Source of the DNA: Eublepharis macularius
Lineage: Eukaryota; Chordata; Lepidosauria; Squamata; Eublepharidae
Direction: 5' to 3'
DNA: 64,000 nt
Assembly (NCBI RefSeq): GCF_028583425.1
Contig: NC_072791.1
Coordinates: forward strand, 40,803,368 to 40,867,367
Every line of letters begins with the position of its first letter. Position 1 is the first letter of the stretch. The notes under the pieces were generated by a model. The model saw nothing but the letters and a program-made list of their open reading frames with translations. It made no database searches and was not told where the DNA came from. The position numbers were made by a program, and so were the translations under genes. Below are positions 1-36,650 of the stretch, in pieces.

Positions 1-60
1 TGTATGCCCTCAAATTTTCCTCCTCTTGTTTTTTTTCTCAGCAAATGGATGACTTGCCTT

Positions 61-159
61 GGTTGTTGTGGGTTTTCCGGGCTGTATTGCCCGGAAAACA
101 GCCCGGAAAACCCACAACAACCATCGTTCTCCGGCCGTGAAAGCCTTCGACAATACATC
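61..159 (+). mobile_element. 99-bp Penelope-like micro-insertion with 13-bp target duplication
   Basis: The 13-mer GATGACTTGCCTT occurs at 48-60 and again at 160-172, exactly flanking the insertion. The insertion is a 24-bp left arm (61-84, starting GGTTGTTGTGGG), a 14-base loop (85-98), the exact reverse complement of the arm (99-122) and a 37-base tail (123-159). Arm and tail match the two ends of the large Penelope-like element at 26389-30746, whose tail sits at 30713-30746 and is likewise absent from the left end. This is therefore an extremely 5'-truncated copy that kept the family's inverted-arm plan. It lies in the intron about 20 bp before the acceptor at 191-192. Confidence 0.85.
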
Positions 160-24579: not shown

Positions 24580-26388
24580 TTTTGTGACCCTCCTTGAATA
24601 CATGGGAACACATGGGAGAGTCTTTTTCCTTCAGACTACTTTCTGCCCTGGAGATCTCTGGTATTGATTGTGTGGGCCTAGTGTGGGGTGCCGAGGAGAG
24701 TTTGGCTATCCGTGTTGTGTACCGACTGCCTAGCGCACCAGCAGATACCCTGTCGCGCCTGTTGGAGGCAGTAGCGGGGTAGGCCTTGGAGTATCCAAGA
24801 CTGATAGTGCTGGGAGACTTCAACGTCCACGCCAATGATGCCGCCTCTACTCGGGCTGCAGACCTGGTATCCTCCATGGCCGCACTGGGACTCTCCCAGA
24901 TTGTTGTGACCCCCACGCCTCAAGCAGGCCACACATTGGATCTGATCTTCAGGGTGGGGATAAATGTGAATCTGGAAGCAGTTGAACTGGTGCCATGGCC
25001 AGACCACTTGGTTCTGAAGGCTCGGCTGGATATGCCGCCCCGACCCTGCAAGGGCGTCAAGCTTATTTATGCTCACCCACGGAGACGTATGGATCCAATT
25101 AGTTTTCAGAATCCTCTGCATGATCCTATACTCTCTGGCGGTTCATTGGATGAGCTGGTGGAAGACTGGCAAGTTCGTCTTTCCGAAGCCATTGACAAAA
25201 TTGCCCCCTGTCACCCTCTTCACCCCTGCACCAGTTTGGCTCCCTGGTATACAAAGGAGCTACGATGGGTGAAGTGGGAGCTGAGACAGCTTGAGTGAGG
25301 GTGGCGGCAATCTCGCAATGATCATCTTATAGGACATTTATGAAAGCCTATAACATGGCGGTGAAGGCTGCAAAGAAAGATTTCTATGCAGCTTCCATTG
25401 CATCAGCTAGCTCACGCCCAGCAAAATTGTTTAATGTGTTTTGGTCACTGGTCTCCCTATCAGGGGGAGACAGTCAAATTTTGAATTCAGATATTAGCTG
25501 TGAGGCTTTTGGGAGCTTTTTTACTGATAAAATCTTGGGAGCTTTTTTGCTGATAAAATCTCAAAGACGGAGGTCCTGCATGTGAGTCTGGGGGTCATGG
25601 GCATGGGACTCCAGCTCCCCACTCTTGATGGAGCGCTACTTGCACCAGTTTCGAGAGTTAGGAGGCTGGGGGTGATCCTGGATGCCTCCCTGACTATGGA
25701 AGCACAGGTCGCAGTGGTTGTCCGGTCTTCATTTTTCTATCTAAGACAGGCCCGGCAGCTTGTCCCCTACCTATCAACCCATGACTTAACTGCAGTGATC
25801 CAAGCAATTGTCACCTCTAGATTAGACTACAGCAACTCGCTCTATGCAGAGGTTCCCCTGGGCCTGATCTAGAGGCTACAGCTGGTCCAAAATGCAGCTG
25901 CACGAGTAATTGCAAGGGTTCCAATTAGGGAACATGTAACACTTATACTATACCAGCTGCACTGGTTACCAGTTGAGTACCGGGTCCGGTTCAAGGTTTT
26001 GGTGTTGACCTATAAAGCCCTATGTGTACTGGGCCGAGCATATCTGCAGGACCCCATATGTACCCCAGAGGATGCTTCGTTCAACTAATAAACAACTGTT
26101 GGTGGTCCCTGGCCCAAGGGAGGCCCGCCTGGCCTCAACCAGAGTCAGGGCCTTTTCGGTCCTGGCATAGACCTGGTGGAACTCTCTGTCTGAGAAACCA
26201 GGGCCCAGTGGGATTTGTTATCTTTCCACCAGGCCTGTAAGACAGAGATGTTCTGCCAGGCATATGGTGGAGGTTAGGTTGGGCCCCCACTGACCACGCT
26301 AAAGATCTGTCCGCCACCCTACATATGAGCCAGGGCTTGAAAAGCAGTATTTTATCATCACCATCTGAAGAGAAGCTGTATTGTATTT
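24580..26388 (+). mobile_element. L2-type LINE, endonuclease and C-terminal RT parts, internally deleted
   Basis: Frame 24594-25298 (one internal TAG at 24780) holds the apurinic-endonuclease domain: RVVYRLPSAPADTL, LIVLGDFNVHAND (catalytic GDFN) and WPDHLVLKA, where PDH replaces the usual SDH. Frames 25340-25585 and 25582-25872 carry the linker and the late RT blocks LGVILDASLTMEAQV and VTSRLDYSNSLYAEV. After a stop come QNAAARVIARVP, LHWLPVEYRV and FKVLVLTYKAL. The RT core with YADD is missing: the sequence jumps from SFFTDKI to KTEVLHVSL near 25560, next to a 24-base direct repeat. The 3' UTR continues beyond the nested insertion at 30747-30880. Confidence 0.9.
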
Positions 26389-26425
26389 GGTTGTTGTGTG
26401 TTTTCCGGGCTGTATTGCCGTGGTC

Positions 26426-26491
26426 TTGGCATTGTAGTTCCTGACGTTTCGCCAGCAGCTGTGGCTGGCATCTTCAGAGGTGTAGCACCAA
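26426..26491 (-). ncRNA. Hammerhead ribozyme (dimer type) in inverted left arm
   Basis: The minus strand repeats the same 66-base motif as 30609-30674, with the identical CTGAAGA, GCCAGC/GCTGGC stem II, GAAA, CGTC and TTGGTG/TGCCAA distal stem I. The predicted cleavage site is within GACGTTTC at about 26443 (plus-strand coordinate). One element therefore carries two oppositely oriented copies. Confidence 0.8.
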
Positions 26492-26548
26492 AAGACAGAG
26501 ATCTCTCAGTGTCACAGTGTGGAAAAGATGTAGGTCATTTGTATCTCC

Positions 26549-26977
26549 TCAGGAGGGATGGGGTTGAGCTGAGTCATCCTGTAAGAGTTTCCCAGGGTGT
26601 GGAATGCTAATGGCGGGAGGCTTCACTGTATCCTGAGGAGGTTCTTTTGCATATGGATTGGTACTTGATGTGCTAATCTTCTCTGCAGGGCTATTGTCGG
26701 GGATAGAATGTTTTGTTAGCCTGGTGTTTTTCAGAACCGGAAACCATGCTCTGTTCATTCTTAAGGTTTCTTCTTTCCTGTTGAAGTTTTTCTTATGCTT
26801 GTGAATTTCAATGGCTTCCCTGTGCAGTCTGACAAAGTAGTTGGAAGTGTTGTCCAGTATTTTGGTGTCCTGGAATAAGATACTATGCCCTGTTTTTGTT
26901 AGGCTATGTACAGCCACTGCTGATTTTTCAGGTTGTCCAAGTCTGCAGTGTCTTTCATGTTCTTTTATTCTTGTCTG
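26549..26977 (-). pseudogene. Inverted duplicate of the GIY-YIG C-terminus in the left arm
   Basis: The minus strand of the left arm reads QTRIKEHERHCRLG through to the same C-terminal QDDSAQPHPS end as the main copy. A few replacements are visible (for example AVAVHSL for AVAEHSL, and TKTGH for MQTGH). GVY and YIG are missing because the arm starts after them. It is a by-product of the element's inverted architecture and not a separate gene. Confidence 0.85.
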
Positions 26978-26987
26978 CAAAGCAAAC

Positions 26988-27899
26988 TTTCAGTTAGGTC
27001 ACAGGGTCTACAGGAAACCAACTCACACTGATCGGTACTTACACAAAAACTCCAATCACCACCCCCGACAGAAAAGAGGCATAATGAAAACATTAGTGGA
27101 TCGTGCAAGACGGATATGTGAGCCGCACTTTCTCAATGAGGAAATTAATCATCTAAACCATGCACTTCAGGCAAATGGCTACTCCAGAAATGAAATCCGA
27201 AGAGCAATCAAACCCAGGGTGAATCAAACAACCAAGGAAAAACAGTCTCCTACAGGAAAAGTGTTTTTGCCATATATCAAAGGAATTACTGATCAGATGG
27301 GAAAGCTTATGAAAAAGCATAACCTTCAAGCAGTATTCAGACCCACCCGAAAAATACAACAGATGCTACGATCAGCAAAAGACAGTAGAGACCCCCTCAC
27401 CTCTGCAGGAGTATACCGTATACCCTGCAGCTGTGGACAAGTTTACATCGGGACCACAAAGCGTAGCATCCAGACAAGAATAAAAGAACATGAAAGACAC
27501 TGCAGACTTGGACAACCTGAAAAATCAGCAGTGGCTGAACATAGCCTGATGCAAACAGGGCATAGTATCTTATTCCAGGACACCAAAATACTGGACAACA
27601 CTTCCAACTACTTTGTCAGACTGCACAGGGAAGCCATTGAAATTCACAAGCATAAGCAAAACTTCAACAGGAAAGAAGAAACCTTAAGAATGAACAGAGC
27701 AAGGTTTCCGGTTCTGAAAAACACCAGACTAACAAAACATTCTATCCCCGACAATAGCCCTGCAGAGAAGATTAGCACATCAAGTACCAATCCATATGCA
27801 AAAGAACCTCCTCAGGATACAGTGAAGCCTCCCGCCATTAGCATTCCACACCCTGGGAAACTCTTACAGGATGACTCAGCTCAACCCCACCCCTCCTGA
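26988..27899 (+). pseudogene. Penelope-like polyprotein C-terminal part: RT end plus GIY-YIG endonuclease
   Basis: The conserved reading begins about FQLGHRVYRKPTHTDRY (27006: VYRK), the end of the Penelope-type reverse transcriptase, where the primer-side helix is followed by the SNHHPRQKRG block. A linker of about 110 residues precedes the GIY-YIG nuclease: GVY at 27408, CSC cysteine pair at 27426-27434, YIG at 27444, the catalytic-type arginine in QTRIKEH at 27477, and REAIEIHK (likely metal-binding glutamate) near 27625. The frame ends with TGA at 27897. It is open over all 304 codons but lacks the start and most of the RT, so it is a dead fragment with an intact nuclease domain. Codons before 26988 are antisense arm sequence, not protein. 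Confidence 0.9.
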
Positions 27900-27921
27900 G
27901 GAGATACAAATAGGGATGTGC

Positions 27922-28080
27922 GTTTCGGCATTCAGAATGCCGAAAGAATGCCGAAACAAAAGTGTTTCGGCTTCTTTTGGGGAATGCCGAAACGTTTCGG
28001 GGAATGCCGAAACGTTTCGGGTAGCCGAAAGAAAAAAGCCGAAACGTTTCGGGATTCTTTCGGCTTTCTTTCGGCTTTTC
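27922..28080. repeat. Left subterminal array of CCGAAA/TTTCGG motifs
   Basis: About 13 copies of CCGAAA or its complement TTTCGG lie in ~160 bases, in both orientations, several as head-to-head pairs (CCGAAACGTTTCGG). Subterminal arrays of short motifs are the usual transposase-binding layout of hAT elements, so binding sites are the likely role (inference). Confidence 0.75.
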
Positions 28081-28361
28081 TATGGGAAAATGCCTCCGTC
28101 TTCCAGGACGCCTGGAGGAGGCATTTTCCCACCGAATAAGCCCAAAATTGGTGGGGCTTCCTCTAACCCTTCTCTAACAACCACCCAAGTTTCAGACAGA
28201 TTGGACTTTGGGGGGCCATGTTATGGCCCCCCAAAGCAGGTCCCCCCATCCTCCCATAAGAAAGCGAAGGAGCAGCATATTGTTAGCATGCTGCTGCTGA
28301 TCTTTCTTCATTATTTCCTATGGGGAAAAAATGAAGAGGCAGGCTTCCTTTGCCAGGGGTA

Positions 28362-28840
28362 GCATTTTGCATGCAAAATGCCCCCCAGCCCTCAGGGGCC
28401 CTTCTCCCACCCCTCCTCCCACCCCCCACCAAGGCTCAGCCTGCTCCCACTTGGGGGGGCCATTTCATGGCCTCCCCAAGTAGGTGCTCTAATCTCTACC
28501 ACTGACAGCTGGGGGAGGCTTGTGTTGCCAGGGGTGGCATTTTGCATGCAAAATGCCCCCCAACCCTCTGGGGCCCTTCTCCCACCCCTCCTCCCACCCC
28601 CCACCAAGGCTCAGCCTGCTCCCACTTGGGGGGGCATTTCATGGCCTCCCCAAGTAAGTGCTCTGCTCTCATCTCTACCACTGACAGCTGGGGGAGGCTT
28701 GTGTTGCCAGGGGTGGCATTTTGCATGCAAAATGCCCCTCAGCCCTCTGGGGCCCTTCTCCCACCCTTCCTCCCACCCCCCACCAAGGCTCAGACTGCTC
28801 CCACTTGGGGGGGCATTTCATGGCTTCCCCAAGTAGGTCC
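28362..28840. repeat. Tandem array, unit about 175-179 bp, 2.7 copies
   Basis: The perfect 20-base palindrome GCATTTTGCATGCAAAATGC recurs at 28362, 28537 and 28716 (spacing 175 and 179). Each is followed by a C-rich block, CACCAAGGCTCAG, CCACTTGGGGGGGC and CACTGACAGCTGGGGGAGG. A fourth, inverted-arm copy of the palindrome is at 30093. Confidence 0.85.
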
Positions 28841-29340
28841 TCTCAGCCCCTAAAGTCCACCCCTTACAGCCCCACACAAACCCAATTCCCCCCCAGCTGC
28901 CACACACAGACCCAAATCCCCACATTAGCCCCTCACAGACCCAAATCCACCCCCACCTGCCCCACACCCATAACCCCAGGAACAGGCTGGCAAAGGCCAG
29001 CCCTCTCCCTTTGTTCCCTATGCTGGGAACTTCTAAACTCTCTTTCCCTAGGCAATTCTGCACAGCCCAGGGGTGCCACAATGGTGGGCACACTTCTGAG
29101 TGCCAGCTGGTCCCTGTGAAAGAGCACCTGAACCACAGACACCCTCCCTCAAATTCCCCCATCACCTACAGAGATGGCTGGCCAGCCAGCCCCATTGTTC
29201 CCTATGATGGGAACCAACTGCACAACAAAGAATAAAACAAGAACAACACAAAATAAAGTTTTAAATTTTTTTTTCTCCCTTCCAAAGTACAAGTAGGCAA
29301 AGCATTATGACACATTACACCAGCAGTCCCCCACACAGAA

Positions 29341-29985
29341 AAATAACACAACTCACTTAACATCAGAGAATCACAAAGCATGATACCTGTCAAAAACACT
29401 TTATTTCTTGAACAGCTTTAGGTTACACAGCAGGGGGGAACACCAAAGGGCATGGCAGCACTATCTTACACAAAAATAACACAACTCACTTAACATCAGA
29501 GAATCACAAAGCACGATTCCTGTCAAAAACACTTTATTTCTTGAACAGCTTTAGGTTACACAGCAGGGGGGAACACCAAAGGGCATGGCAGCACTATCTT
29601 ACACAAAAATAACACAACTCACTTAACATCAGAGAATCACAAAAACACAATTCCTGGCAAAAACACTTTATTTCTTGAACAGCTTTAGGTTACACAGTAG
29701 GAGGGCACAACAGGGCATGATAGCAATGTACTACAAAAAATAATACAACCCACTTCACCGTTTTTGACAGCAATTGTGTTTGTGTGATTCTCTGATGTGA
29801 AGTGAGTTGTGTTATTTTTGCGTAGTACACTGCTTTCCTGCTCTGCGGTGCCTTCCTACTGTGTAACCTAAAGCAGTTACAGAAATAAAGTGCTTTTGAC
29901 AGCAATTTTTTGGGGTGATTCTTTAATGTGAAGTGAGTTGTGTTATTTTTGTGTAAGATACTGCTTCCATGCCCTTTGGTGTCCC
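29341..29985. repeat. 133-bp tandem repeats, three forward then two inverted
   Basis: The marker ATAACACAACTCAC recurs at 29343, 29476 and 29609 (period 133) and in degenerate form at 29740. From about 29760 to 29985 the unit runs the other way, with GTGAAGTGAGTTGTG at 29797 and 29928 (period 131). The switch point near 29750 is the centre of the foldback element. Confidence 0.85.
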
Positions 29986-30402
29986 CCCCCCCTGCTGTGT
30001 CCCCCCATGAAATGCCCCCCCAAGTGGGAGCAGGCTGAGCCTTGGTGGGGGGTGGGAGGAGGGGTGGGAGAAGGGCCCCAGAGGGCTGGGGGGCATTTTG
30101 CATGCAAAATGCCACCCCTGGCAAAGGAAGCCTGCCTCTTCATTTTTTCCCCATAGGAAATAATGAAGAAAGATCAGCAGCAGCATGCTAACAATATGCT
30201 GCTCCTTCGCTTTCTTATGGGAGGATGGGGGGACCTGCTTTGGGGGGCCATAACATGGCCCCCCAAAGTCCAATCTGTCTGAAACTTGGGTGGTTGTTAG
30301 AGAAGGGTTAGAGGAAGGTCCCCACCAATTTTGGGCTTATTCGGTGGGAAAATGCCTCCTCCAGGCGTCCTGGAAGACGGAGGCATTTTCCCATAGAAAA
30401 AA

Positions 30403-30532
30403 GCCGAAAGAATGCCGAAATAATGCCGAAAGAATCCCGAAAGTCGAAAGCCGAAAGAGATTCTTGTTTCGGCTTTCGGCTTTAACGATAGAGAATCTTC
30501 TTTCGGCTTTCTACTTTCGGCTATAGCCGAAA
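30403..30532. repeat. Right subterminal array of CCGAAA/TTTCGG motifs
   Basis: About ten CCGAAA/TTTCGG copies plus one TCGAAA are visible. They mirror the left array, but their spacing differs from it. Confidence 0.75.
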
Positions 30533-30608
30533 ATTTTTGGCTTGCACACCCCTAGATACAAATGACCTACATCTTTTCCACACTGTGACACTGAGAGATC
30601 TCTGTCTT

Positions 30609-30674
30609 TTGGTGCTACACCTCTGAAGATGCCAGCCACAGCTGCTGGCGAAACGTCAGGAACTACAATGCCAA
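30609..30674 (+). ncRNA. Hammerhead ribozyme (dimer type) in right arm of the Penelope-like element
   Basis: All core elements are present in order. Core box CTGAAGA is at 30623-30629. Stem II is GCCAGC/GCTGGC (30631-30636 with 30644-30649), capped by a 7-base loop. GAAA is at 30650-30653, then CGTC at 30654-30657 with predicted cleavage after C30657. Stem I forms from CCT/AGG next to the core and TTGGTG/TGCCAA distally, with an internal loop between. Stem III is only the self-complementary ACGT (30653-30656), so activity would need two molecules pairing. Hammerheads of this kind are established in Penelope-like elements. The fold is my manual pairing. Confidence 0.8.
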
Positions 30675-30746
30675 GACCACGGCAATACAGCCCAGAAAAC
30701 CCACAACAACCATCGTTCTCCGGCCGTGAAAGCCTTCGACAATACA

Positions 30747-30880
30747 TGTATTGTATTTATTGTATAAAGTTTTGTTATTTGTATAATGTTTTATCTGTTT
30801 TTAACTGTTATTTATGTAAATTGAAATGTTGTACTCCGCCCTGAGCCCGCCTGGTGGGGAGGGTGGAGGGAGGCTCCGAG
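30747..30880 (+). mobile_element. 3' end of the plus-strand L2 interrupted at 26388
   Basis: After the Penelope-like 3' target copy, the AT-rich L2 3' UTR resumes and ends in TACTCCGCCCTGAGCCCGCC and GGTGGGGAGGG, the terminus also seen at 51735-51780. This confirms that the Penelope-like element landed inside the L2. Confidence 0.75.
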
Positions 30881-31245
30881 CTAGAAGACTTGTGTCACTG
30901 TCTTCTATGCTGTCCACTCTACACATCCCCTAGAAAGAAATTTCTAAGCCCAATCTTAGCCAGGTTGGGACCCAGACATGATAATGAAAACATTGTTGCC
31001 GTATTAGCAGATGTGGACCCAGAGACCTCATACAAGGTCCCTCTTTTTGCCCTTGCAGCAGAGAAAATTCGAGAGAAGGTGGTGACAGCTCAGGGCTGTC
31101 ATTAGGCTGCAAGCGCAATAGTGTAATTCTTATAGTGTTTTATTAAGTGTGTATTGTATATTTTATCTGTATCATAGCTTATATATTTGCTACTGTTTTA
31201 TTGTTTGCAATGGCCTTTAGTCCAATGCAATAAATCCTGAACTGA
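30880..31245 (+). mobile_element. LINE 3' end, clade uncertain
   Basis: Frame 30854-31105 ends in a LINE-like C-terminus: CHCLLCCPLYTSPRKKFL (Cys/His cluster followed by a basic stretch), LARLGPRHDNENIVAVLADV and a final AEKIREKVV before the stop. A 3' UTR with GCAATAAATCC and a (TGAAC)(AATAA)-type tail follows. I cannot assign it to L2 or CR1 with confidence. Confidence 0.5.
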
Positions 31246-31297
31246 ACTGAATAAATAAAATAATGTGATTTTTTTTCAATCTTCCATTCACTGGCTG

Positions 31298-31436
31298 ATT
31301 CCGCACACGTTGGATAATGCACTTTCAATGCACTTTATCAATCATTTGAGGTGGATTTTTTGTTCCGCACACCAAAAAATCCGTTCCAATTGATCTATAA
31401 AGAGGATTGGAAGTGCATTATCCAACGTGTGTGGAA
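31298..31436. mobile_element. Palindromic MITE with ATTCCGCACACGTTGG arms
   Basis: The left end ATTCCGCACACGTTGGATAA and the right end TTATCCAACGTGTGTGGAAT are inverted with one mismatch. The arms extend through GTGCATT/AATGCAC and a second GTTCCGCACAC inside. No coding capacity and no clear target duplication. Confidence 0.7.
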
Positions 31437-31539
31437 TTACTCTATGATTCTGCAACCTTATGCCACCTCAGTTTATTTGCTTTCTGATTATGGCAGACTA
31501 ATTTAGATTAAATCAGGAAATGTGTTCTGAGAATTTTGT

Positions 31540-31747
31540 TCATGTATTTAGTACATTTTTATGCCACCTGTCCTCCAAGGAACTCAGGGAGCCATATGGC
31601 ATTCTCCCCACATCCATTTTATCTTCACAATAACCCTCTCAAGCTGAGAAAGAATGACTGGCCTGAGGTCATTAGCAAGTTTCCATGGCAGAGTGGGGAT
31701 TTGAACTCAGGTCTCCTAAATCCTAATCCAACTGCTACTCGATACTG
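31540..31747 (-). mobile_element. tRNA-derived SINE, minus strand
   Basis: Reversed family layout: TATGCCACCTGTCCTCCAAG (tail), TTTTATCTTCACAATAACCC, then GCAGAGTGGGGATTTGAACT with a B-box complement and the head near 31740. It lies head-to-head with the plus-strand copy at 31750. Confidence 0.75.
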
Positions 31748-31749
31748 GT

Positions 31750-31990
31750 TCAGAAGGATTCCAGAGCGGTATTGTGGTTAGAGTGTCAAGAGTACAATCT
31801 GGGGGACCTAGGTTCAAATCCACACTTTGTATGGAAGCTTGCTTGGTGACTTGGGCCATTCACATGCTCTCAACTTAAACTACCTCACAAGGTCATTGTG
31901 AGGATAAAATAGAGTAGAGAAGAATGATACAAGTTGCTTTGGGTCTCCATCTGGGGAGAAAGGCAGAGTATTAAAGAAGTAAATGTATAA
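31750..31990 (+). mobile_element. tRNA-derived SINE
   Basis: Head GGTATTGTGGTTAGAGTGTC, B-box-like TAGGTTCAAATCC, body CTACCTCACAAGGTCATTGT and AGGATAAAATAG. The LINE-like tail GGGGAGAAAGGCAGAGTA is followed by AAAGAAGTAAATG. Confidence 0.8.
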
Positions 31991-31994
31991 TTAA

Positions 31995-34900
31995 AAACTG
32001 AAGAGGACTGAAGTTCTTCAGCTCCCTCCCAGTATCCTAAAGCAACTTTCATTGCATGCATTTGTCGTATCCCCATTGGTTAAGCCTGGCCATTAAAAAA
32101 AAAACATTAGCATGTATCTAATGATCTCTGAATCTCATAGAGCAGGATTTTCATGCTTCACCCTCTGCCTGCAGCCCGCTGAGCCCCTGGAAATTTTATT
32201 GCTGGATGTCAGCAGACCTTCAGGAGCAGTGCAAGGTGCTAAGTGAGTGGCTATAATGGGAGGGGGAAATCAGCAGAGATTATTGCCCCCTTTCCCAAAG
32301 ACTCAGATAACCTTAAGTCTTCAGAACTGTGTGGTTGAATTAATTTGTCTCAGTAACCTTCTAAAAAAACAGTGGTTTATAGAACTTTTAACAGTGTGGA
32401 AGAACTTTCTTTATAACATCATGCTATCCAGTCAGGACTGTCTTGTGCTCTGTATATGAAAATCCTATAAACATGAGTCTTCGCGTAAGAGAGCATACTT
32501 CGAGTCTGTTGTATAAACAGGTCTAAGTTTAGCACAGCAAACTCTTGAGAAAAAAAGATGGGAAATAAGCACTTAATCAGCAAGTAATTTTACTACCCTA
32601 TCCAAGATTAGGAAAAGAGAAGGGTGAAGTCAAGGCCAAGTGTATCAGACAGAGAGCAGTTGAAATAGTACCATGCCAATTTATATATGGAAGTCCCATA
32701 ACACCATTAAAATGTGCACAATCTTAGTGTGTTGTTGTGTTACCTTTTAGCTATATCCCCGAGAAAAGTTACTGTTACCCAAACTGTGTCCCTCCCACAT
32801 GGCTTGTTTAAAGCAACCAAAAGGAATGAGACAGGTAAGTTGGGCTGAGTGGACCGAAAGGTACAGTGGGATAAATTCAGAAGGAGATTTGGTTAGGAGG
32901 AAATGAGCTCCTGACCACATGGGGAGGCTAGGGGAAGACTACTAGCAGCAGGCAGACCAGTCTGGAGTGGGAGAGTCATGAGATGGGAAATGGGTAGAGA
33001 GAGGTGAAGACTTAGATCTGGGGATTAAAGACACTCTGATTGTCAGGACAGGAAACGTGTCTGGTGACTCCATGTTCATGGTTCTGGGGGGGGGGGGGGG
33101 AGACCAGCTCTGAAAGATGGGGGCTTGAGATGCCCTACTATTTGTTTAGAGTTGCAAGGATGGGGAAACTCTTCCACTAGTCAAATTCTGTGCGGAGTTA
33201 GGCTCTGAGCTGGGATTGGGCCAAGGCTGTGGGGTCTCATTCCTATTGATGGGTTTCAATTTTCACTTCCATGGTGAAGTGGAAATCTAAATATGGCCAT
33301 GCTAGGTGAGGCAACAGGACAGCAAAGTGATCTAGGTGGGATGAGTTGTGGACCAGCTAGGAACAGTTCAATAGAGGGTGAGCAGTGGCTTGATGGCCTT
33401 CCTTGGGCTTGTGACTGAATTGCTGGAAAAGACATATAGTGGGAAGTAGACTGGAACTTTAAGGTATTACCCTGAAAACTTACATCACTGCTTGAACCTC
33501 TGGAGGACTAAACAAAAGGGACCCTGATTACTGTTCTCCAGGAACATTCAGGCAGTTAGGCTACTCCATTTTGGAACTGTCTGAGAGGAATTCCTGCCTA
33601 GACTGAGAGACCCAGTCTAAATATTATGTTTTATGCCTGCATCTGTAACATCTGTGGCCAGAAGATCTTGGGGTGCAAAGTAACACCAAGTATGTGTATG
33701 GAGGGGACAAAGCCTCTCGTCTCCCTGGGCAGCAGTTAGATCACAGACTGCAATGTGGTGCAGGAATAGCAATAGCCAGTAATAGAGCTCTGTGTCATAT
33801 AGAACATTTGTTTAACATATCTAAGTAGGAGATCATCGCTTTGTTTTTTGTAGGATAGAGGTCGTAATTATGTTGTTTTCAACCCCTTAGATGTTCTGTT
33901 CTGAGATTCTGGGTATTTAGGAAAAATTATTGCAAAAGGATGGCTGGTACTCTTCTCTACATATCAGCTGCAGTGTATTGGAAATATGCTTTATAACATT
34001 TAATATGTTGTCACAGTTATGCAATGTGCAGGGAGCCAAGCAAAATTCCATTCTTGTATTTTATCTTAAGATGTAGAACATTGGCCCATTATCCATCCAC
34101 TTGCAGAGGTTAGAAGCAAAATCTGCTGAAACAAAAGTAAATAATTTCCTATGCTGTATTTTTACAATTTTACCATTCCCTTTCTTATATCTTCAGCTTT
34201 TTGTGTGTGTGTAACAATTTCTTTCACCCTCCAAATTTATTTTTTTAAGATACTGCTATTGAGTCCTGTTATTCTCTTCTTTCTCTTTTAAAAGAGGGAT
34301 TTCTCTTCCATTTCTCTTTGAAGAGAAATCAAGGCACCCTTTTGTAACTTCAGCCCTTGCAGTTCTTCGTAACAAATCACAGGGGTGTGCTCCTGCACGA
34401 GGATAGGATAGGAGGCTAAGAAGGTTCGGGAAGACATTGTCTGCCTCTGAGCATCCACAGAGTAAAATTCTGAATTTTTGCAGAATCTCTCTTCCTGACC
34501 CTCCTTTTTTCAAATTTCCCTTTGATCAAAATAGAATTGGTTTGAAACAGACTCCAGATTTTTAAAAAGAGGAAAAGAAATGGATTGATGGATTTCAGAG
34601 AGAAATTAGGTTACAAGGAACTAAAAGAATTTTGCTTAACACTATTTTTGGGTATAGGATGTCTGGGGTTGGAAATGTAAAGTCATGATATGTAATTGAT
34701 GCCAACCACATGTGCATTGTAATAATTTGGGGGCTAGGAATATATGGCCATATATGTGAAACAATTTTGCACATTGTGTGGGACAAAAGATGAAGTGCCT
34801 GTACTTGTTTTCCCACTTCAAGGGGGTGGGATTTATGTGCAGGGTGATTGTATAAACGAGCCTGAAATTTCACATAAACTGCATAATGAACACAATAAGC

Positions 34901-35070
34901 AGTTTGGTTAATGACTAAAAAGGCAAAATTGCTGTTTCCTGTGCTATGTTGGCAAAGCTCCTCTCAGAAGTTCACTTTGAAGGGAGGTTAAAAAGCTGCA
35001 GAAGAACATAACAAAACATTTCATGCCATAGCTCTGAGGGTATAGCTATATAACCTGCCTCCTGCAGTAA
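31995..35070. other. Long stretch without identifiable gene
   Basis: Unassigned sequence. A G-run of 16 bases sits near 33086-33101. The part at 32950-33060 (GGAGTGGGAGA, AATGGGTAGAGAGA, AAAGACACTCT) resembles 35925-36030 (GGAGTGGGAGATGG, AATGGGTAGAAAGA, AACACTCTTAC), so both may derive from one undescribed dispersed repeat. Confidence 0.35.
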
Positions 35071-35079
35071 TCAAGATTA

Positions 35080-35690
35080 TAGGATTCCCAACACTGCCTC
35101 TGCAAATGCCAGGAGATTTGGTGACAATGCCTGCAGAAAGCAGAGTTTGGGGAGTATGCAGTGTCACTTCTAGGTGATGCTGTAGGCTGCCCCCTAGTCT
35201 CTATGGTCCACTACTTACTAAAGGTGGGCAGGAACCAAAATATGAACTGAAGTTCGTCACGAACCAGACCAGTTTGTGGTTTGCGTACCAGTGGTTTGTG
35301 CGAGCTCATTTCTCACGAACCGTGACGAATTTTAGCACAGTTCATTTCGTTCATATTTTGGTACGTCGCTGCAGACAGCCTGGCACTTATCGATCAGTTC
35401 CCTAGGCGACTGGGGGGTAGTGGACTCTGCAGATCTTCTGCTAACCCAGAAGTGATGTTTTCATGAACTGAACAAACCTGTTTGCGAATTGAGGCAACTT
35501 TGTGAAAGTTCATGGTTTGTGAAAGACACAGTTTTGAATTTTCCCAGTTCGTGTCCATCTCTAGTCTTTACCATAGGAAAATTCCTAGAGTGTCACCTCA
35601 TGGAGGCCATTTTTCCTCCATTCCTCCATTCATTGGGGCTGGGAAATTGGGGCTGGAGGCTGGTAATTCCCTACCCTGGGAGCTTAAATG
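35080..35690. mobile_element. TAGGGTTGCCAA-family hAT remnant hosting a nested MITE
   Basis: The left part (35080-35218) has TAGGATTCCCAACACTGCC and the family block GCCTGCAGAAAGCAGAGTTT. The right part (35564-35690) has GGAAAATTCCTAGAGTGTCA and ends GGCTGGTAATTCCCTA. The MITE at 35219-35563 splits it. I could not confirm a target duplication for the outer element. Confidence 0.5.
35219..35563. mobile_element. MITE rich in GTTCG/CGAAC words, TAGAGATGG-type end
   Basis: The right end, read inward, is TAGAGATGGACACGAAC and the left end is TAAAGGTGGGCAGGAACC, a decayed inverted pair. The interior repeats GTTCGT, CGAACC and ATGAACTG words in both orientations. Flanks CTACTTAC and GTCTTTAC agree at 5 of 8. 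It is a diverged relative of the better-preserved 44322 copy. Confidence 0.6.
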
Positions 35691-35699
35691 AGAGACCTA

Positions 35700-36650
35700 C
35701 ATGACTGCCATGTTTCCAGATAACAGCCTAACAGATGTCATGATTAGCATGTTGCCATGGGAAGGGCTGGACTCACACCCTGCTGAGACCTGGGGTGATT
35801 TTGGGCTATTCATTTTCTATTAGCTTAATGTACCCCACAAAGTGATTGTAAGGACTGAAAAAACCTGGGACCACCCATTCAATGCGCGATCATCTTCTGA
35901 GCTCATGCCCATCTCTACTGGCCAGGAGTGGGAGATGGAGAAGCAAAGGAACAGGTAATGGGTAGAAAGACATGAAAGGTTAAATTCTGGATGGAGAGTA
36001 AAACTGGGAAAAGAAAAACACTCTTACTTGTTTTGAAGAGGAAAGGCTGAGTGATTTCATACTTGTGGTGCTGGAAGACAGAGGGGAATCAACTACAGTG
36101 ATGGAGAGCTTGATATGTTCTTCTTATGCACTTGGATTACCTGGGCTCCAAATGGGGGAGCTCTGTCATGGTCCAAATTCAGAGCAGGACTTGTTTCCAT
36201 GATCATATTGGACCATGATCGTATTGGATCGTATTGGATCTATGATCGTATTGGATCGTATTGGACTTGAATTTTTGGTAAGCAGAGGATGATGTGTAGC
36301 CAGAGAAAGTGGTAGTCCACATATGGTCATAAGGGAGAGGAGAATGGTGGGCACTATCTGACAGCCGTATGATCTGAGTGGCAAACCAGGCCTGTCTGAC
36401 AAAGGCCAGGAGGTGGCTTCATGATCCTTCCTGGGTTTATGATGACTAATCAAGGATGATTGCATTGTAGGGGGAATCCTGAGAGCTTTGGTTATTTGTC
36501 CTGGAAAACAGGGTCATTGATTATGGCCATAGGTGTGAGGTGTTTCAGAAAGTCAAACATAGGAGCTTTGATTAACTCCTAGAGTATTCATTTTGAGAGT
36601 ATGCAGAGGGACTAAAGGGACTTAAGGGACTGCCGTAATCAAGAGACCCA
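35700..36650. other. Mostly unassigned; short ATCGTATTGG tandem repeat at 36196-36266
   Basis: Around 36196-36266 the word GATCGTATTGG recurs five times (GATCATATTGG, then GATCGTATTGG copies), a small minisatellite. The rest is unassigned apart from the faint similarity to 32950-33060. Confidence 0.5.

What the first reader, a model, noticed from the sequence alone, without database searches (positions are those of the whole stretch)
30609..30674. Dimer-type hammerhead ribozyme in the right arm of the Penelope-like element
Seen: CTGAAGA, GCCAGC/GCTGGC stem II, GAAA, CGTC and a two-part stem I (CCT/AGG and TTGGTG/TGCCAA) in correct order. Stem III is only self-complementary ACGT, so two molecules must pair. 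Known: hammerheads occur in Penelope-like elements. Inference: this copy could still self-cleave as RNA after C30657, because no core base is mutated.
Basis: partly seen in the sequence, partly recalled or inferred. Interest (0 to 1): 0.8.

Follow-up and report, generated by a model that had tools for sequence, protein, structure and literature searches.

The report
Hammerhead ribozyme in a Penelope retrotransposon
This is an intact copy of a small RNA-cutting motif that Penelope-like jumping genes are already known to carry, lying across the start codon of such an element in what is probably a reptile genome; it is a neat but ordinary member of a described kind.

Summary
The motif is real at 30609-30674, with an identical copy on the minus strand at 26426-26491. 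None of 300 shuffles matched a descriptor of it. No Rfam hammerhead model reports it; the form has no closed stem III. It lies in a truncated, head-to-head Penelope-like element whose protein end has squamate proteins as its top three hits. The layout equals the published Anolis Poseidon hammerhead (PMC11167929): start codon at stem II, cut 26 nt downstream. That ribozyme cleaved only with the element's protein added, and mutating it did not stop insertion; the same paper also recalls Penelope hammerheads self-cleaving in Mg2+. So the identification is right and the class is known. 'Could still self-cleave' is weaker: no same-sense partner in cis, one extra U after A9, and a predicted local fold that hides stem I. 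Both long arms run through the cut site, so sense templates, if used, were uncleaved (inference). Two insertions end near +118 and +83/84 of the frame, matching the published reverse-transcription start and tail. Ordinary; interest low.

The parts
30609..30674 (+). Minimal type I hammerhead ribozyme motif, right arm
   Evidence: letters checked; 0 of 300 shuffles
26426..26491 (-). Identical hammerhead copy in the inverted left arm
   Evidence: 66 of 66 identical; core match 26443-26477
30609..30614 (+). Stem I outer, 5' strand (pairs with 30669-30674)
30620..30622 (+). Stem I inner, 5' strand CCT (pairs with AGG 30658-30660)
30623..30629 (+). Core CTGAAGA (C3 to A9)
   Evidence: numbering recalled
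30630..30630 (+). Extra U between A9 and stem II; middle base of the ATG
30629..30631 (+). ATG of the Penelope reading frame (MPATAAGETSGTTMPRPRQ...), at the edge of stem II
   Evidence: translation; same layout described for Anolis Poseidon (PMC11167929)
30631..30649 (+). Stem II hairpin, 6 bp, loop CACAGCT
   Evidence: pairing probability 0.94-1.0 alone, 0.63-0.78 in three longer contexts
30650..30656 (+). GAAA and self-complementary ACGT (stem III only between two RNAs)
30657..30657 (+). C17; predicted cut between 30657 and 30658, inside codon 10
   Evidence: 29th base from the A of the ATG, 26 past the start codon
30584..30619 (+). Upstream hairpin predicted to take up the stem I 5' strand
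   Evidence: z -2.93, 2 of 200 shuffles as good; 30609-30614 pair with 30589-30594 at 0.96-0.97
26979..27899 (+). C-terminal part of the Penelope-like protein (endonuclease end), stop at 27897-27899
   Evidence: 319 proteins at E 0.001 or better among 709 candidates, 120 listed; top three squamate
26388..26977 (-). Left, inverted arm of the element (590 nt)
   Evidence: 579 of 590 identical to the right arm
26978..30746 (+). Right arm of the element, interrupted by a transposon at 27912-30553
27912..30553 (+). Later insertion of a transposon with inverted repeats; 10-bp duplication AGATACAAAT at 27902-27911 and 30554-30563
30713..30746 (+). 34-nt optional tail, present only on the right arm; ends at +118 of the reading frame
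   Evidence: compare PMC11167929 and PMC3846280
26377..26387 (+). Target-site duplication TGTATTGTATT, left copy
30747..30757 (+). Target-site duplication TGTATTGTATT, right copy
60..157 (+). Second, tiny head-to-head Penelope insertion without the hammerhead; ends at nearly the same element positions; 12-bp duplication GATGACTTGCCT at 48-59 and 160-171

Best explanation
This is a minimal, stem-III-less type I hammerhead ribozyme of a Penelope-like retrotransposon of the Poseidon kind, lying across the start codon of the element's reading frame. The cut would fall between C30657 and A30658, inside codon 10. It needs a partner RNA to complete stem III (ACGU with ACGU) and, by analogy with Anolis Poseidon, may also need the element's own protein to fold. 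It is probably not needed for making new copies: reverse transcription starts downstream of the cut (+83/84 and +118) and reads through it, so a sense template that made this insertion was uncleaved. This copy itself is a dead, truncated, transposon-split insertion. Shown here: letters, duplicate, boundaries, target duplications, reading frame. Inferred: cleavage, dimer, protein help, sense template, order of events.
For: Motif and chance tests. Penelope-like protein upstream, top three hits squamate. Position of the ATG and cut as described for Anolis Poseidon: C3 and G8 before the start codon, cut 26 nt after it. Both insertions found in the window end near +118 on the right and +83/84 on the left; in vitro, Poseidon reverse transcription starts 111-118 nt into the frame and a 30-40 bp tail lies between its two start sites. 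Inverted arms, tail and target duplication are reported for other Penelope elements (PMC3846280, passages). Both long arms run through the cut site.
Against: No Rfam hammerhead hit at any threshold used. Extra U30630. The hammerhead fold costs 4.6 kcal/mol over the best fold for the 66 nt alone, 9.1 in 183 nt and 10.7 in 335 nt; outer stem I pairs have probability 0.25-0.58 alone but 0.0 in longer context, inner ones 0.0-0.01 throughout; the double hammerhead scores -27.5 against -43.3 kcal/mol for the best dimer fold. The model ignores tertiary contacts and ions. No relatives' DNA was obtained, so no covariation test. I saw the paper's description of the Anolis ribozyme, not its letters. Against a need for protein: the same paper recalls Penelope hammerhead self-cleavage at 3-25 mM Mg2+. 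Against the uncleaved-template inference: PMC3846280 favours self-priming on an antisense template for head-to-head structures, in which case the sense ribozyme would not matter.
Confidence: 0.85

Rival explanations
1. At this locus the motif is an inert fossil: intact because the copy is fairly young, never transcribed in a form that cleaves.
For: 0 of 11 arm differences in the motif is expected by chance (p = 0.27). The element is 5'-truncated and split by a 2.6-kb transposon. The second motif is antisense. In Anolis RNA-seq no reads begin or end at the cut (PMC11167929).
Against: Core and stems are intact in both arms. Transcription was not examined.
Confidence: 0.6
2. It self-cleaves by itself as a monomer.
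For: Core letters fit, stem II is stable and outer stem I is partly predicted when the 66 nt are folded alone. PMC11167929 recalls Penelope hammerhead self-cleavage in Mg2+, form not stated in the passage.
Against: ACGU cannot close on itself without a loop, so a monomer has no stem III; the monomer's best fold pairs away part of the core; Anolis Poseidon RNA showed no cleavage without protein.
Confidence: 0.04
3. Chance hammerhead look-alike in coding sequence.
For: No Rfam hit. Five hits to the core pattern exist in two large collections (1, 4): four lack stem II by the descriptor and the fifth lacks stem I, so the pattern alone does occur by chance there.
Against: 0 of 300 shuffles of the window; location and spacing of the published Poseidon ribozyme.
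Confidence: 0.02

Closest known systems
Hammerhead ribozyme of Anolis carolinensis Poseidon (PAc), PMC11167929 (main-text section read in full)
   Same: Place at the pseudo-LTR/ORF junction, ATG at stem II, C3 and G8 before the ATG, cut 26 nt downstream; insertion end at +118; optional tail
   Different: Another element, fragmentary and split by a transposon; its protein end is 74% identical over 78% of the query to the best-listed Anolis (A. sagrei) protein; activity untested; letters of the Anolis ribozyme not compared
Small Penelope-associated hammerhead variants that cleave RNA as dimers (Lunse et al. 2017; only the title and mentions in other papers seen)
   Same: Penelope setting, no closed stem III, self-complementary stem III
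   Different: Consensus letters and the extra U could not be compared; the paper is not held
Penelope hammerhead motifs of Cervera and de la Pena 2014 (only mentions in other papers seen; not held)
   Same: Minimal type I motif in Penelope pseudo-LTRs
   Different: No letters compared
Metazoan retrozymes with type I hammerheads (PMC7229834, passages)
   Same: Type I hammerheads; dimer action in amphibian examples
   Different: Retrozymes are short non-coding tandem repeats; this lies in a protein-coding element

Membership tests
Hammerhead ribozyme, minimal type I (Penelope variant) | Core CUGANGA ... GAA with A15.1-U16.1 and H17 | tested here: met
   consensus recalled
Hammerhead ribozyme, minimal type I (Penelope variant) | Stem II follows A9 directly (general hammerhead consensus, recalled) | tested here: not met
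   One extra base, U30630. The ATG-to-cut distance equals that given for the active Anolis Poseidon ribozyme, which suggests the same spacing there (inference). I keep the filing on that ground
Hammerhead ribozyme, minimal type I (Penelope variant) | Stems I and II | tested here: met
   9 and 6 possible pairs, though stem I is not predicted to form in longer context
Hammerhead ribozyme, minimal type I (Penelope variant) | No closed stem III; self-complementary for dimer action | tested here: met
   ACGT 30653-30656, no loop
Hammerhead ribozyme, minimal type I (Penelope variant) | Cleavage after H17 | not testable with these tools
   Needs RNA
Rfam hammerhead families | Score at the gathering threshold | tested here: not met
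   0 matches in the window; no hammerhead among 40 rows with E up to 10 in 25000-36000 or 3 rows in 30560-30750
Penelope-like element | Telomerase-like RT plus GIY-YIG endonuclease protein | tested here: inconclusive
   Only the endonuclease end is present. Some of the 120 listed homologues bear PF00078 or PF01541 (names RVT_1 and GIY-YIG recalled); the query itself passes no Pfam cut-off; motif VYRIPC...VYIG by eye
Penelope-like element | Inverted partial copy, optional tail of about 30-40 bp, target duplication | tested here: met
   590-nt inverted arm, 34-nt tail, 11-12 bp duplication; second insertion alike; compare PMC3846280 and PMC11167929

The most novel reading that the evidence does not exclude
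The ribozyme may be a protein-triggered off-switch for its own mRNA. A pseudo-LTR hairpin (30584-30619) holds the stem I strand, so the start codon is usable. When the element's protein builds up and binds the first part of the reading frame, it frees stem I, the hammerhead cuts inside codon 10, and the start codon is severed from the message; RNAs escaping the cut serve as templates. Cutting and translating (or copying) one RNA would then be mutually exclusive. (Put at 0.07 instead of my earlier 0.08 after re-reading the passage on Mg2+-only self-cleavage.)
Probability: 0.07. Interest if true: 0.65.

Novelty: new member of a known kind. Interest (0 to 1): 0.25.

Why it matters
The role of Penelope hammerheads is described as unknown (PMC7761336, passages). 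This locus adds two natural insertions whose ends match the in vitro start sites of Poseidon reverse transcription, and arms that run through the cut site, which fits the view that cleavage is not part of copying. It suggests a simple genome-wide test: do arms end at the cut site (+30) more often than chance?

Tried and rejected
Rfam at gathering and E-value thresholds: no hammerhead. The best MIR821 and MIR3440 rows lie in palindromes (the first inside the inserted transposon), far below their gathering scores; taken as artefacts, not tested further. Core pattern in viral and genome collections: 1 and 4 matches; four fail the stem II descriptor and one lacks stem I, so chance. Related loci in viral contigs from a 15-protein alignment: 121 pattern matches, none confirmed. 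N-terminal peptide, two searches: no candidate sharing three words; the first query was 499 residues, shorter than the full-length protein I meant to imitate, so the length filter was not ideal. Solved structures: none at E 0.001. A cis dimer between the arms was rejected because the left copy is antisense. No covariance model was built: I had only two identical sequences. Paper searches; none of these listings showed a paper on the start-codon switch idea, but the libraries hold only open-licence papers and I did not search for it exhaustively.

Full report
Observation. The core reads CTGAAGA (30623-30629), then U30630, a six-pair stem II (30631-30636 with 30644-30649), GAAA (30650-30653), ACGT (30653-30656) and C30657. 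Stem I has an inner part CCT/AGG and an outer part TTGGTG/TGCCAA with two G-U pairs. Two places in the 64-kb window meet a general descriptor of this form, this one and 26443-26477 on the minus strand; none of 300 dinucleotide shuffles does. A stricter pattern gives the same two places and none in 100 shuffles. Both were written after seeing the motif. Folded alone the motif is not remarkable (z -1.37, 19 of 200 shuffles as good).

Rfam. No hammerhead family reports it: 0 matches in the whole window at gathering score, no hammerhead among 40 rows with E up to 10 in 25000-36000, none among 3 rows in 30560-30750. I do not take it as refuting, because the motif has no closed stem III, which standard hammerhead models describe (recalled); I had no positive control for this variant.

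Surroundings. The element is a head-to-head Penelope-like insertion. The left arm (26388-26977, minus strand) equals the end of the right arm at 579 of 590 positions. The right arm begins at 26978, carries the C-terminal part of the protein (26979-27899) and ends at 30746. It is flanked by TGTATTGTATT at 26377-26387 and 30747-30757; one further T is ambiguous. A 2.6-kb transposon (27912-30553) with inverted repeats and a 10-bp duplication AGATACAAAT has split the right arm just after the stop codon. The protein search returned 319 proteins at E 0.001 or better among 709 candidates, 120 listed; the top three are from Pogona vitticeps, Liasis olivaceus and Anolis sagrei, while many further hits are from insects and unnamed sources. 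The query passes no Pfam cut-off itself. The host is therefore probably a squamate (inference); its genome could not be searched, since eight requests did not complete.

Relation to the reading frame. The next frame's ATG is 30629-30631: its A is core position A9 and its G the first base of stem II. The predicted cut is 26 nt past the ATG, inside codon 10. The paper on Anolis Poseidon, PMC11167929, whose main-text section I read in full ([quoted passage not shown] There the ribozyme cleaved only with the element's protein added, catalytic mutants did not affect insertion, and no RNA-seq reads were found to begin or end at the cut. The same paper's methods say that its authors had earlier seen self-cleavage of Penelope hammerheads at 3-25 mM Mg2+, so a need for protein may not be general.

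Ends. The right arm ends at +118 of the reading frame and the left at +83/84. A second insertion at 60-157, with the duplication GATGACTTGCCT, ends at the same left position and at +118 to +120 on the right. These are the only two Penelope insertions that a blastn search of the window with this element found. The paper reports reverse transcription starting 111-118 nt into the frame and a 30-40 bp tail between the two start sites; here the two ends are 34 nt apart. Both long arms run through the cut site, so a sense RNA template was not cleaved there (inference). A paper on rotifer Penelope elements instead favours self-priming on an antisense template for head-to-head structures (PMC3846280, passages); then the arms would say nothing about the ribozyme. 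Of the four arms in the window none has its inner end at +30, but four is few.

Likely mechanism. Two RNAs would pair their ACGU to make stem III; double hammerheads are described for Penelope elements (PMC6466107 section 7; PMC7761336 passages). In this copy the second motif is antisense, so a partner must come from another transcript. In the predicted fold of longer context the stem I strand is held by an upstream hairpin (pairs at 0.96-0.97; hairpin z -2.93, 2 of 200 shuffles as good). Alone, outer stem I pairs have probability 0.25-0.58; in longer context 0.0. Forcing the hammerhead costs 4.6 kcal/mol alone, 9.1 in 183 nt and 10.7 in 335 nt. The double hammerhead scores -27.5 against -43.3 for the best dimer fold. 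These numbers ignore tertiary contacts, ions and protein. They agree with the published need for protein and do not prove it.

Selection. Eleven of 590 arm positions differ and none in the motif, which chance gives with p = 0.27. Intactness is thus no evidence of function at this locus.

Verdict. This is a member of a described kind: the minimal Penelope hammerhead. A bolder reading, a protein-triggered switch that severs the start codon, is not excluded and is given at low probability. The two defining papers (Lunse 2017, Cervera 2014) were not held, so I cannot say whether this exact family is listed in them.

Noticed in passing
60-157: Tiny second Penelope insertion made only of two inverted end pieces, with a 12-bp duplication; ends at nearly the same element positions as the main one
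   Followed up: yes
27912-30553: Transposon with long subterminal inverted repeats (428 nt at 98%), ends AGGGATGTGC / GCACACCCCT, 10-bp duplication AGATACAAAT; family not identified
   Followed up: partly
28310-28842 and 29335-29600: 179-nt and 133-nt direct repeats inside that transposon
   Followed up: no
29620-29935 and 31289-31448: Plant microRNA models match these palindromes far below their gathering scores; probably artefacts of hairpin shape
   Followed up: no
24783-25298 and 25531-25872: Open frames that look like remnants of a LINE-type retrotransposon (first one: weak Exo_endo_phos match, E 0.00088, below cut-off; second by eye); the Penelope element may sit inside or next to it
   Followed up: no
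protein P0013: A partial protein labelled Escherichia coli is a clear Penelope relative; likely contamination of the record
   Followed up: no
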